In this document: piece by piece, positions 1-11,116 of the stretch | Position numbering within the stretch: position 1 is the stretch's first letter | Layout: every line of letters begins with the position of its first letter | Assembly (NCBI RefSeq): GCF_001895925.1 | Contig: NZ_MPPI01000022.1 | Location: 1 to 64,000 of the forward strand | Source: Phormidesmis priestleyi ULC007 | GTDB lineage: Bacteria; Cyanobacteriota; Cyanobacteriia; Leptolyngbyales; Leptolyngbyaceae | DNA: 64,000 bases | Direction of reading: 5' to 3' | Position numbers and translations under genes: made by a program | Notes under the pieces: generated by a model | Databases searched by the model: none | What the model was told of the DNA's origin: nothing | What the model saw: the letters and a program-made list of their open reading frames with translations, nothing else

Positions 1-115
1 GCACAATTACATCGGTAGGCTATAGAGATTGCTTGAGCCGTGTACAGTGAAAGTTGTAAGCACGGTTCTGAGGGGAGGGAGGGAGATATATCTAAAACTC
101 ACTCCTTTACCCGAC
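1..115 (+). mobile_element. 3' end of a group II intron (domains V and VI)
   Basis: Positions 35-68 form a textbook domain V: GAGCCGT pairs with ACGGTTC around an inner helix, with the catalytic AGC triad at 36-38. Positions 71-108 fold as domain VI (AGGGAG against CTCACTCCT with unpaired A residues), and the intron probably ends at the ACCCGAC around 109-115. The intron body and any reverse-transcriptase ORF lie outside the window to the left. The splice site sits about 30 bases upstream of the phospholipase-like gene. I infer the intron class only loosely (chloroplast-like type). Confidence 0.8.
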
Positions 116-146
116 CACCAACCTTCAGTTTTTTGAGGAACTTTAT

Positions 147-1229
147 ATGAAGAAGAGATTACATTTAAGCGTCATCACTTGGACTCTATGTATTTTCGGA
201 TATGCAAGCATTGCATATGCTGATGTAGATGGTATTCCCCATAACCCTGATTTCGATACAGCCCAATATCCCTATGCTCAAGCTCCAGATGGTTGTAGCA
301 GTTGGGATAGTGCTCATCCTGAATGGATGAGAGATACCTGGGGATCAGTTAATTTCAGTGGAGGTTGTAATACTCACGACAAATGCTATTACACATTGGG
401 TTCCAATTGGCAATCATGCAATGAGCGATTCTACTCTGATTTAAGAGCCGCTTGTGAACGCGATCTGAGAACTTCAATTCAAGTGCCTGCTCCAACATTG
501 ACTGATCCTTTTAAGACACGAAGAGTTGATGGGCCACCTGATCCGATCAGACTACCAGTTTGCTATGGAATTGCAAGCACTTACTATACGGGAGTGCAAG
601 CTGGTGTCGTCAAAATCAAATGGCTGGATACTTTCAACAAAGCTCAAGACAAGCAAAGGCGTTATGAACAATGGGTTGCCAGTATAAGAAATCCAAGTAC
701 CGCAAGTAACCCTGTTTTTGATGCTGACTTCTACTTAATGTCATATGGAGATCTTCGGAATGCCTTTGGAACTAACCAGGGATCTGCCAGGGATCATTGG
801 CTGAGATATGGTATCAAAGAGGGACGTAGAAGTTCACCCGCGTTTGATGTTCAGTACTACTTAAGTTTGTATCCTGATCTTCAAAATGCCTTTGGCTCTA
901 GTAACTATTCGGCTGCAATAGATCACTGGCTCACCTATGGTATCAAAGAGGGTAGGAGGAGTTCTATTGTTTTTGATGTTAAATACTATCTAAACAAATA
1001 TCCCGATTTGCAGAACGCCTTCGGCTCTAACAACTATTCAGCAGCAGTAAATCACTGGCTCACATATGGTGTTTCGGAAGGTCGTCAAGGTTCTCCAGAC
1101 TTTGATCCTAAATTCTATTTATCTAACAATCCTGATGTAGCAAAGGTGTACGGAGCCAATAACTACAAGGGAGCAATCGAACACTACTTGGAATATGGAA
1201 AAGGAGAAGGTCGTCAAGGAACTCCATAG
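147..1229 (+). CDS. Secreted phospholipase A2-like protein with four C-terminal repeats
   Basis: The 360-residue product starts with a signal peptide (about residues 1-25, cleaved after a YA pair). The segment CNTHDKCY at 74-81 is the PLA2 calcium-loop/active-site signature, with His77-Asp78 as the catalytic pair; Cys91 and Asp98 of the following helix fit the second helix of the fold. From residue 189 there are four repeats of about 43 residues with the pattern FDxxYYLxxYPDLxxAFGxNNYxxAxxHWLxYGxxEGR, a repeat seen in bacterial surface proteins of unknown role. A GAGGAA ribosome site lies 6 bases before the ATG. The gene is followed after 8 bases by an attC-like site and preceded by an intron end, so it looks like a mobile cassette. 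Phospholipase activity is inferred from the motif. Confidence 0.75.
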   Translation: MKKRLHLSVITWTLCIFGYASIAYADVDGIPHNPDFDTAQYPYAQAPDGCSSWDSAHPEWMRDTWGSVNFSGGCNTHDKCYYTLGSNWQSCNERFYSDLRAACERDLRTSIQVPAPTLTDPFKTRRVDGPPDPIRLPVCYGIASTYYTGVQAGVVKIKWLDTFNKAQDKQRRYEQWVASIRNPSTASNPVFDADFYLMSYGDLRNAFGTNQGSARDHWLRYGIKEGRRSSPAFDVQYYLSLYPDLQNAFGSSNYSAAIDHWLTYGIKEGRRSSIVFDVKYYLNKYPDLQNAFGSNNYSAAVNHWLTYGVSEGRQGSPDFDPKFYLSNNPDVAKVYGANNYKGAIEHYLEYGKGEGRQGTP

Positions 1230-1237
1230 TCGTGACG

Positions 1238-1324
1238 GTCTAACAAGCCCACTGCACCGGAACGAAGTCAAATTGTCTTTAAGCAGCAAAGTCAATCTGC
1301 GTCCGGTGAGTGGGAGCGTTAGAC
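1238..1324 (+). other. attC-like integron recombination site
   Basis: The 87-base segment has R'' GTCTAAC (1238-1244) and R' GTTAGAC (1318-1324), both matching RYYYAAC and GTTRRRY and perfectly complementary. Inside, CCCACT-G-CACCGGA pairs with TCCGGTG-AGTGGG; the G between the two blocks is unpaired, exactly like the extrahelical base of real attC sites. The bases AAG and AGC between R and L boxes form an unpaired central spacer. It begins 9 bases after the stop of the phospholipase-like gene, the normal place for an attC. No integrase gene is in the window. Confidence 0.7.
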
Positions 1325-1485
1325 CTCAATCCTTGTGGCAGCCGAAAGCTTATCTGTGGGTAGCGGTAATCATGTGGGAGGAAGTTTTCGGTTAAAGTCC
1401 GCTTGGAGCTTGGAAGTGTTTATTGAAATGTAATCTTCGATTTATCTATTCAATTTATCCTCATAGAATTGCTTGGTAAGATGCA

Positions 1486-1848
1486 ATGCTGACAAACGAA
1501 GCTTTTTTAGATCAGTTAATCAAAAATCACTATAAGGCGGCGCAGGAAATGACTTTTGCTGTGATAGTTCATGTCGTACTTGCGATCGCTGCTTTTCAAA
1601 TTTTGCCAGGTATTGTACAAGGCTCTTTTGACAAGCTGGCAGGAGTATTGGGAGGTAGTGTTTTTGGTGGATTGGGCTTTATTCCAGGTAAAGAGATCTT
1701 GGATCGCAGGGAAAAAGCCAGGAATTTAGAAGCTGCCCGACCGCTATTGAAAGAAATTCAGCAAAACTCCTCGCTAATAGACCCTGTTGAAACGCAACGA
1801 ATCAAGGAAGTATTTTTGAAATTGATTGAGAAAACGGTATCTGGTTAA
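1486..1848 (+). CDS. Small membrane protein of unknown function
   Basis: The 120-residue protein has two hydrophobic stretches (about residues 22-46 and 50-66, the second glycine-rich) followed by a charged, probably helical tail of about 50 residues. I do not recognise a family. It sits 4 bases upstream of the next gene start, so the two are probably co-transcribed and may act together at the membrane. Codon use is AT-rich with little HIP1, like the neighbouring accessory genes, which suggests acquired DNA. Confidence 0.55.
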   Translation: MLTNEAFLDQLIKNHYKAAQEMTFAVIVHVVLAIAAFQILPGIVQGSFDKLAGVLGGSVFGGLGFIPGKEILDRREKARNLEAARPLLKEIQQNSSLIDPVETQRIKEVFLKLIEKTVSG

Positions 1849-1852
1849 AATT

Positions 1853-2503
1853 ATGTCTTTTTCCCAAGATGAACTTCAGTCTCTTATTGAAAAGGTTGAA
1901 ATCAGCCAAGTAAAAGCTCGTAGACGTACCATCATTGCAGTGCTTGTTCCTACAGTTGCTGCAATCTTGTATTTAGGATTTACAGTTTGGCTAATTTATA
2001 TTAAACAACATGAATTAAATAAAATCGAAGGAGACTTGAAGAACCGTAAATATGAGCTAAGTCAAGTAGAGCAAGAATTAAGTCAAAAGGAGGAACTGTT
2101 AAAGAAAACAGAAGGAAATTTTAAGCAACAAAACGAGCAGATTCGACAGGCTCAACAAAAAATTTCACAAGGAAATACAGTAGCTGCCCAAGAACAGATA
2201 GCTAGCATTAACACAAGTTTTGAGGACAACGAGGTAAACGGCTTTCGTGCTATTCTAAAGGGGGATTTAGAAAATGCGCGTCGTTTGTTTGAAGCGGCTT
2301 ACAACGCATCTCCCACTTATCACAATGTTGATGAAATTTATCATCAAGTTCTAACACAGGGTCTTGTTAGAGCCTACAGCATTGGTTCTCCTAATGAGAA
2401 GCAATCGATTCAGCTTAAAATCATGCAAGAAATTGTTGCGAAGTACAGTTGGGGTATACCGGAAGATTTACTTAGTGAGATGAAATCAAGGTTGGCAAGT
2501 TAA
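1853..2503 (+). CDS. Membrane-anchored coiled-coil protein of unknown function
   Basis: I place the start at the ATG at 1853 rather than a TTG at 1826, because the latter overlaps the upstream gene. The 216-residue product has one transmembrane helix (about residues 26-49), a long Lys/Glu/Gln-rich coiled coil (about 50-115) and a C-terminal helical part that resembles a TPR unit (the segment ILKGDLENARRLFEAAY). Function is unknown. It forms a two-gene unit with the preceding small membrane protein, and the pair lies between a good attC-like site and a degenerate one, so it could be the cargo of a second cassette. Confidence 0.55.
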   Translation: MSFSQDELQSLIEKVEISQVKARRRTIIAVLVPTVAAILYLGFTVWLIYIKQHELNKIEGDLKNRKYELSQVEQELSQKEELLKKTEGNFKQQNEQIRQAQQKISQGNTVAAQEQIASINTSFEDNEVNGFRAILKGDLENARRLFEAAYNASPTYHNVDEIYHQVLTQGLVRAYSIGSPNEKQSIQLKIMQEIVAKYSWGIPEDLLSEMKSRLAS

Positions 2504-2976
2504 GTCAACAGCTACTTCAAGGATCTAGTATTTCTATCAGGCTTCTAGAGTCCAGGATTTCAGAGCTTTTGGTTACGGTGCAAACACTTGGATAATTTGT
2601 GTGGAAGGTTGAGCGCTGAGAGATTTGGAGATGGAGTGCGATCTCGGTCAAGTCTTTGGGGAGCGATCGAGATTTCGGGCTTGTCATAGACGGTCTAACA
2701 CTTCAGCGCAGCGGACGGTCGAAAGCTGCTGGTGCTGGGTTCGAGGTTATCTGCCGCCGCTAGCTTTACATCGTTATCCTACTATGTTGTCGATCGTGGC
2801 ATAAAAAGCTATCTCTGAGATGACTAAGAGAATTTTGGTGATTCCAAGTCATAGTCCGGTGAATGCAATCACAATGGGCGGAATTGTGCGTGACGCTGGG
2901 TTAATGATCGCAGCGTTCAGAAAATTACTATGAACCAGATCGCTTTGATTCCTCACTTCTAGAGATTGCGTGTGAA
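2504..2976. other. Intergenic region with a degenerate attC-like site and a short ORF
   Basis: No convincing gene is present. At 2820-2933 there is a 37-codon ORF starting MTKRILVIPSHSPVN that I cannot assign; it has no clear ribosome site and may be a remnant. The attC-like sequence at 2693-2779 is listed separately. The remainder shows no structure that I can support. Confidence 0.4.
2693..2779 (+). other. Degenerate attC-like site
   Basis: The segment starts with GACGGTCTAACA, the same 12 bases that open the better site at 1233-1244. AGCG-cA-GCGG pairs with CCGC-C-GCT across a loop, leaving unpaired bases as in an attC L box. The right R box GTTATCC pairs with GTCTAAC at only 5 of 7 positions. 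The span is 87 bases, the same as the first site. It may be a decayed end of a second cassette, or chance. Confidence 0.3.
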
Positions 2977-4454: not shown

Positions 4455-4652
4455 ATGAGAAGACCGCTATCCCCAACCTCAAAACAAGAAGCTCGGTGCT
4501 TCATCCTTTGTCAAAATCTCACGACTCTGTACCGTCCAATTTATCTTGTCAGATTGAATGAGCGGGCAGGAGATATTTGCATCTTGGCAGGAGAAGAAAT
4601 AGAAATTATCATCACCCGTGATGGGGAATGGAGTTTTGAAAATGAAGCCTGA
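4455..4652 (+). CDS. Small cyanobacterial protein (DUF6888-like)
   Basis: The 65-residue protein ends in a conserved-looking core, YRPIYLVRLNERAGDICILA followed by EEIEI and DGEWSF, which I recall from a family of short cyanobacterial proteins (DUF6888 or similar); the family number is from memory. Its stop overlaps the start of the next gene by 11 bases, so the pair is translationally coupled. Such coupled small-gene pairs often belong to mobile or toxin-antitoxin-like modules, but nothing here proves that. Confidence 0.55.
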   Translation: MRRPLSPTSKQEARCFILCQNLTTLYRPIYLVRLNERAGDICILAGEEIEIIITRDGEWSFENEA

Positions 4653-10890: not shown

Positions 10891-10930
10891 TCTTAACGTG
10901 AATTCGACGACTTCGTTACCAGTCCATCGT

Positions 10931-11011
10931 GCCCCCTAAATCCCCCAAATTGGGGGACTTTGAATCGGAAATTTTGGCTTGAAGTCCTCCAGAATGGGGG
11001 ATTTAGGGGGC
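10931..11011. repeat. MITE-like inverted repeat (CCCCCTAAATCCCCC type)
   Basis: GCCCCCTAAATCCCCCA at the left end is the exact reverse complement of TGGGGGATTTAGGGGGC at the right end, giving 17-base terminal inverted repeats of an 81-base element. A second complementary pair (GGGGGACTT against AAGTCCTCC) continues the stem. Ends of this type are scattered in many cyanobacterial genomes. It lies between convergent genes and carries no ORF. Confidence 0.75.
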
Positions 11012-11116
11012 AGAAGCCGCTGACAACGAAGCGAAAAAACTCGTTGAACTGACGTTAATTTTACGAGAGGATGAGGGCAATTCGAGAAATGGCAACAATG
11101 GAAGTTGTCTAGAGCG

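What the first reader, a model, noticed from the sequence alone, without database searches (positions are those of the whole stretch)
147..1324. Phospholipase-like gene directly followed by a well-formed attC site: a cyanobacterial integron cassette?
The 87-base structure after the stop codon has both R boxes, an unpaired central spacer, an L stem with one unpaired G, and a variable loop, which is the full attC layout. It follows a single secreted-enzyme gene at normal cassette distance. Integron cassettes are well known in proteobacteria and much less so in cyanobacteria; a PLA2 with C-terminal surface repeats as cargo would be unusual.
Basis: partly seen in the sequence, partly recalled or inferred. 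Interest (0 to 1): 0.75.

Follow-up and report, generated by a model that had tools for sequence, protein, structure and literature searches.

The report
Cyanobacterial gene cassette with intron-invaded docking site
The window begins with a genuine integron gene cassette, a swappable gene that site-specific recombination can move, in a cyanobacterium; the more surprising part is a group II intron (a ribozyme retroelement) next to it, from a lineage found in several cyanobacteria exactly at the site where new cassettes dock.

Summary
Window 1238-1324 is an attC site with perfect R''/R' boxes, an L stem and two unpaired bases, 8 bp after the stop codon of a secreted phospholipase-A2-like gene. 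A covariance model built from this site and three sister sites finds about 35 attC sites in this genome, with strong covariation. The genome also holds two intact integron integrases with cassette arrays. Around integrases of other cyanobacteria the model gives 50 hits, all upstream of the integrase on the opposite strand. The gene is therefore an integron cassette; the two-cassette array in the window has no integrase beside it in this assembly (CALIN). Cyanobacterial integrons are already known, so this part is a new member of a known kind.

Related ~766-nt introns, too short to encode a reverse transcriptase, lie directly after the GTTRRRY core of attI-like sequences, in cassette orientation, in 11 of 12 copies from six genomes. 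Copies in this genome are identical although their flanks differ, so they moved recently. I found no published intron homing to attI; known IIC-attC introns enter attC in the opposite orientation. Homing to attI is inferred from positions; retrohoming and splicing were not tested.

The parts
1..115 (+). 3' end of a group II intron (domains V and VI, ends ...TTTACCCGAC); the contig starts inside the intron
   Evidence: Rfam RF00029 63.3 bits; identical to two other contig starts up to base 115 and divergent after it
116..1318 (+). Gene cassette 1 body, from the intron's 3' boundary to the G of the attC core G^TTAGAC (inferred boundaries)
   Evidence: Intron boundary and attC core
147..1229 (+). 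Secreted phospholipase-A2-like protein, 360 aa: signal peptide by eye, CNTHDKCY motif, four C-terminal ~45-aa FDxxYYLxxxPDLxxAFG..HWLxYGxxEGR repeats
   Evidence: ORF; Pfam PF06951 E 8e-6, 26.3 bits, below its curated cut-off of 34; domain homologue in G080, itself directly after an attI-like sequence
1238..1324 (+). attC site: R'' 1238-1244, L'' 1248-1260 with unpaired G 1254, unpaired A 1261, L' 1303-1314, R' 1318-1324
1486..1848 (+). Cassette 2, ORF a: 120-aa protein without a Pfam or NCBIfam match, apparently a membrane protein
1853..2503 (+). Cassette 2, ORF b: membrane-anchored coiled-coil protein (function unknown; ATG chosen by eye inside the listed ORF 1826-2503)
2693..2779 (+). Second, partly decayed attC closing cassette 2 (R'' GTCTAAC, R' GTTATCC)
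   Evidence: covariance model hit 21.7 bits, E 0.01 in 407 kb, 0.0047 in 189 kb; sequence

Best explanation
The PLA2-like gene and the attC at 1238-1324 form a mobile integron cassette in a filamentous, Leptolyngbya-like cyanobacterium. An IntI integrase can fold the bottom strand of the attC and recombine it at G^TTAGAC, excising the cassette or inserting it at attI; the genome carries two intact integrases elsewhere that could act in trans. The window holds a two-cassette array without an integrase, most probably downstream of an attI-like site. Between that attI and the cassette lies a group II intron without a reverse transcriptase gene, in sense orientation. Its lineage retrohomes into attI directly after the GTTRRRY core, using that core as intron-binding site 1, with a reverse transcriptase supplied in trans. 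Because the intron enters after the core, attI stays usable by IntI and the cassette transcript can be restored by splicing. Shown: the attC structure and array, the integrases, the intron positions, and identical introns in differing flanks. Inferred: trans action of the integrases, retrohoming with a trans-acting reverse transcriptase, splicing, and that the missing left flank of the window is attI.
For: attC: exact boxes and fold; three sister sites; about 35 sites by covariance model with covariation; an ORF upstream of 30 of 35 sites, median stop-to-R'' gap 24.5 bp. Integrases: two intact IntI genes, each divergent from a cassette array with attC. Independent test: at IntI loci of other genomes, 50 hits in 27 loci, all on the opposite strand and upstream of intI, apart from 3 palindromic echoes of the same sites; same on a Kovacikia minuta plasmid. 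Genomes with IntI are enriched for attC hits (8/16 against 20/276, Fisher p 2e-5). Intron: 3' ends identical over 114-115 nt before three unrelated sequences; 5' ends identical over 86-115 nt after flanks only 33-88% alike; 11 of 12 copies in six genomes follow GTTRRRY, most in recognisable attI sequence, several beside intI or an intI remnant. A loop at intron position ~124 is a perfect 7-nt complement of the core in one copy.
Against: No integrase lies on the window's contig, and the assembly breaks inside the intron, so the attI to the left is inferred from the four other contigs that end in this intron. The loop-to-core pairing is imperfect in most copies (about 5-6 of 7 positions). One intron copy (G093) follows ATTAAAC rather than GTTRRRY, and G215c has GTTAAGC without a recognisable attI. 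The second attC is weak. No recombination, splicing or expression data exist here.
Confidence: 0.84

Rival explanations
1. The stem is a chance inverted repeat, a transcription terminator or a palindromic repeat of another kind, unrelated to integrons.
For: Both strands fold almost equally well, and the array has no adjacent integrase.
Against: R and L boxes with conserved unpaired bases, strong covariation, consistent placement just after ORFs, and the same model marking arrays on one side and one strand of intI in other genomes.
Confidence: 0.02
2. The intron does not home to attI: it rides inside cassettes as part of one cassette family that integrase inserted at several attI sites.
For: Every intron whose 3' side was read in this genome is followed directly by cassette-like DNA; in principle an intron-bearing cassette can be moved by IntI.
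Against: The three 3' flanks are unrelated (15-33% over 100 nt) while the intron is identical, so one mobile cassette cannot explain them; introns in other species also sit beside intI at attI.
Confidence: 0.12
3. The intron is an old, fixed relic at attI that was copied together with attI by duplication of dead integrons (segmental duplication), not by retrohoming.
For: Several contigs share about 650-950 bp of homologous sequence upstream of the orphan attI sites (85-94% identity), so duplication of integron remnants did happen.
Against: The intron ends are 100% identical while the adjacent attI flanks are 33-88% identical; duplication would give similar divergence. Gene conversion between copies could mimic this and is not excluded.
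Confidence: 0.15

Closest known systems
Chromosomal (sedentary) integrons of cyanobacteria and their attC sites
   Same: IntI of the TIGR02249 subfamily, divergent array, attC with R and L boxes; phylum-level attC model published (PMC8352920); presence in cyanobacteria noted in PMC2426708 and PMC8618304.
   Different: Here attC sites are scattered over many contigs as small clusters and singletons, several attI-like sites lack an adjacent integrase, and one cassette carries a PLA2-like enzyme.
Group IIC-attC introns (such as S.ma.I2 of Serratia marcescens)
   Same: Group II introns that exploit integron recombination sites; this genome also seems to have one, on contig C53.
   Different: IIC-attC introns insert in the attC bottom strand at TTGT/T, opposite to the cassettes (PMC7923331). 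The intron here inserts after GTTRRRY of attI, in cassette orientation, and is too short to encode a reverse transcriptase in the full-length relatives.
Group IIB/CL1 intron UHB.I2 in a hypersaline integron array (PMC7923331)
   Same: Group II intron in cassette orientation, immediately after a recombination site.
   Different: UHB.I2 encodes its own reverse transcriptase, follows an attC, and is a single case with poorly conserved exons.
Secreted phospholipase A2 (Pfam PLA2G12-like, CxxHDxCY motif)
   Same: Apparent secretion signal and the His-Asp motif.
   Different: Below the Pfam cut-off; fused to four C-terminal repeats, and to different repeats in the homologue of G080.

Membership tests
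Integron attC site | R'' RYYYAAC and R' GTTRRRY that pair | tested here: met
   GTCTAAC / GTTAGAC, 7 of 7 pairs
[quoted passage not shown]
   Consensus fold with covariation; unpaired top-strand G in 40 of 40 aligned sites, i.e. C on the bottom strand; second base A (bottom T) six pairs away. T-N6-C is a known functional type (PMC3053210).
Integron attC site | Occurs in arrays linked to intI, same orientation, array divergent from intI | tested here: met
   (other genomes), C58 and C38 integrons
Integron attC site | Recombination by IntI | not testable with these tools
   needs an in vivo assay
Integron integrase (IntI) in the same genome | TIGR02249 above cut-off | tested here: met
   458 and 428 bits against 265
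CALIN (attC cluster without adjacent integrase) | Two or more attC within a few kb and no intI nearby | tested here: inconclusive
   Two attC at 1238 and 2693; the left side of the contig is missing
Group II intron | Domain V/VI, 5' GUGYG and 3' AY ends | tested here: met
   RF00029; 3' end ..GAC; own-genome copies start GTGCG; relatives start GCGCG, a small departure
Group IIC-attC intron | Insertion in attC bottom strand at TTGT/T, opposite to cassettes | tested here: not met
   Insertion after GTTRRRY of attI-like sequence in cassette orientation
Phospholipase A2 | PLA2 fold and catalytic His-Asp | tested here: inconclusive
   Motif present, Pfam 26.3 bits below cut-off 34; single-sequence model failed, pLDDT 38

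The most novel reading that the evidence does not exclude
A lineage of group II introns without a reverse transcriptase gene has made the integron docking site attI its homing site: it reads the same 7-bp core, GTTRRRY, that the integrase uses, and enters just behind it so that attI stays functional and the cassette transcript can be spliced clean. New cassettes would then push the intron-bearing cassette down the array and free attI for another intron.
Probability: 0.6. Interest if true: 0.72.

Novelty: new variant of a known kind. Interest (0 to 1): 0.58.

Why it matters
It supports integron cassettes as an active gene-exchange layer in cyanobacteria, here carrying a secreted enzyme rather than a resistance gene, and it gives a clear attC and attI anatomy for that phylum. 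If the intron lineage does home to attI, two unrelated mobile systems, a tyrosine recombinase and a retroelement, read the same short core without destroying it. That would be a natural experiment in how a ribozyme retroelement adapts to a recombination hotspot.

Tried and rejected
AlphaFold on the PLA2 region from one sequence gave pLDDT 38 and was discarded. A PDB sequence search with the PLA2 domain found nothing, and no plasmid record matches it. Most homologues of the full PLA2 protein in other genomes match only its C-terminal repeats. I first took the intron for a possible IIC-attC intron or an insertion behind attC; the 5' exons showed attI instead. A pattern scan with my own R''/R' rule found only the strictest attC sites and was replaced by the covariance model.

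Full report
What was claimed.

Check of the observation. The ORF is window 147-1229, and the stem is 1238-1324 with R'' GTCTAAC and R' GTTAGAC fully complementary. Folded as single DNA strands, the bottom strand reaches -22.7 kcal/mol (z -6.7) and the top -21.7 (z -5.9), better than all shuffles. On the bottom strand the two unpaired bases are T and C, six pairs apart. The C (top-strand G) is invariant in 40 of 40 aligned sites of this genome (contig duplicates included). Most attC sites studied before have G as the second unpaired base, but T-N6-C sites are functional and are the type IntI3 recombines best (PMC3053210). Among plasmid-borne integrases, class 3 IntI3 enzymes are near the top of the non-cyanobacterial matches to the C58 integrase, at about 50% identity.

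The sites in the genome. The window is contig C32 of a 5.68-Mb draft genome, starting at contig base 1. A DNA search finds three sister sites, on contigs C87, C39 and C104. A covariance model from the four (R1) finds 41 matches at E up to 1 in the whole genome. On the fetched regions it gives 43 matches; removing three reverse-strand echoes and five duplicates shared by contig pairs C62/C69 and C41/C113 leaves 35. Covariation is strong: 87.8% of cells paired (shuffled 69.5%, slid 31-40%) and covariation score 0.452 (shuffled 0.148). The R1-fitted alignment leans towards the structure, but the controls differ clearly. An upstream same-strand ORF of at least 60 aa is found at 30 of 35 sites, median gap to R'' 24.5 bp; a few of those gaps exceed 200 bp.

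Integrases. TIGR02249 finds two intact IntI genes: C58:2144-3121 (458 bits) and C38:6990-7964 (428 bits), and a C-terminal remnant on C37. Each intact gene is read away from its array: C58 has a cassette gene at 1262-1810(-) with attC 1121-1233(-); C38 has attC at 4565, 3831 and 2445, all (-).

Independent test. I fetched 80 loci around relatives of the C58 integrase from named genomes, mostly filamentous cyanobacteria, the rest largely Chloroflexi. R1 gives 50 hits there in 27 loci, every one upstream of intI and on the opposite strand; three further rows are weaker echoes of the same palindromes on the other strand. All 27 loci are cyanobacterial except one record labelled Gracilibacteria, whose integrase is 71% identical to the C58 one. 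A Kovacikia minuta plasmid shows the same layout, with four attC in front of intI. In 292 sampled genomes of the phylum, 28 have R1 hits; 23 of 386 have an integrase above cut-off. Within the 292, attC hits occur in 8 of 16 genomes with integrase and 20 of 276 without (Fisher p 2e-5).

The intron. Window 33-115 is a group II intron domain V/VI (63.3 bits). The same 115 nt open contig C87 and, one base shorter, C51; all three diverge exactly after ...CCCGAC. On C87 the next features are again an ORF and an attC, and on C51 an attC follows at 2458. In relatives the intron is complete: 765-767 nt in genomes G005 and G215, too short for a reverse transcriptase gene. Its 5' side there is attI territory: a 282-aa IntI match in G005 ends about 80 nt before the intron, and intI fragments lie near two copies in G215. 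Two named integrase loci, Pleurocapsa MO_192.B19 (L121) and Nodosilinea LEGE 07088 (L112), have it directly in front of intI at attI. In the own genome five 5' ends were found, on C26, C52, C80, C37 and C108 (C108 truncated). In the table of 12 copies, 11 follow GTTRRRY; the exception is G093 (ATTAAAC). Most share the attI signature seen at most IntI loci examined: CGGAAAnTTTC, a TAATAAATA-like stretch, then the core. G215c has the core but no clear attI.

Recent movement. Pairs of own-genome 5' ends are identical over 86-115 nt while the 60-nt 5' exons are 33-88% identical; the 3' ends are identical over 114-115 nt with unrelated 3' flanks. That argues for movement of the intron alone. Gene conversion or local duplication is not excluded, since stretches further upstream of some orphan attI sites are shared.

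How it may choose its target. A loop near intron position 124 reads GGCTAAC in G215b, a perfect complement of its 5' exon GTTAGCC; in other copies the match is about 5-6 of 7, with one plausible co-varying position (G005: GTTGGGC / GGTCAAT). This is suggestive only; a second intron-binding site was not identified. Several group II reverse transcriptases occur in the genome, none tied to this intron.

The left flank. Four own-genome contigs end in the intron's 5' part at attI-like sites, and three begin with its 3' part, C32 among them. By elimination the PLA2 cassette very probably stands first behind one of these attI-like sites. None of the four has an intact integrase in the stretch read. 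This join is inferred.

Cargo. The protein has a signal-like N terminus, a CNTHDKCY motif and a weak PLA2G12 match below cut-off, then four repeats that are common on cyanobacterial proteins. The only clear PLA2-domain relative listed in 292 genomes is in G080 (40% identity), on contig C68, starting 39 nt after an attI-like GTTAGAC and carrying different C-terminal repeats. A second such gene at an attI-like site in another family strengthens the cassette reading. Enzymatic activity is untested.

Comparison with literature. Integrons in cyanobacteria: PMC2426708, PMC8618304, PMC8352920. Introns in integrons: IIC-attC, opposite orientation, TTGT/T in attC, and one IIB intron directly after an attC in cassette orientation (PMC7923331). 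Contig C53 here carries what looks like a IIC-attC intron: attC bottom strand ending ..GAATTGT followed by GTACGCCCAGC, reverse transcriptase on the minus strand. Library searches for introns with attI found no attI-homing family; the library lacks most subscription papers, so priority is not proven.

Verdict. The cassette is real and of a known kind; the attI-seated intron lineage is the new variant.

Noticed in passing
G000:C53 (L055:1900-3930): Apparent IIC-attC type group II intron on the minus strand, seated at TTGT in the bottom strand of an attC; its reverse transcriptase reading frame has one internal TGA.
   Followed up: partly
G000 C26, C52, C80, C37, C39, C57, C108 (L230, L228, L229, L011, L013, L226, L231): Several attI-like sites without an intact adjacent integrase; some share 650-950 bp of upstream sequence, as if dead integrons had been duplicated.
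   Followed up: partly
attI regions upstream of intI in loci L108-L178: Cyanobacterial attI regions are rows of roughly 35-bp palindrome-like units (TTATnCGGAAAnTTTCnGnATAA) ending in the core; possibly repeated integrase binding sites.
   Followed up: no
L225 (G080:C68), about 1-1300, minus strand: PLA2-domain homologue directly behind an attI-like site, with different C-terminal repeats; the ORF runs to the contig end.
   Followed up: partly
L232 (Kovacikia minuta plasmid pB): Integron with four attC sites on a cyanobacterial plasmid, with a DNA methyltransferase gene nearest the integrase: a possible vehicle for spread.
   Followed up: partly
window 10930-11060: Inverted-repeat element (CCCCCTAAATCCCCC...GGGGGATTTAGGGGG) with similar copies on contigs C26, C37 and C52; looks like a small MITE-type repeat.
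   Followed up: no
G000:C58:3458-3829 and C38:8260-8631: Nearly identical 123-aa ORF just behind both intact integrase genes, with a trace on C37; no Pfam match for the C58 copy.
   Followed up: no
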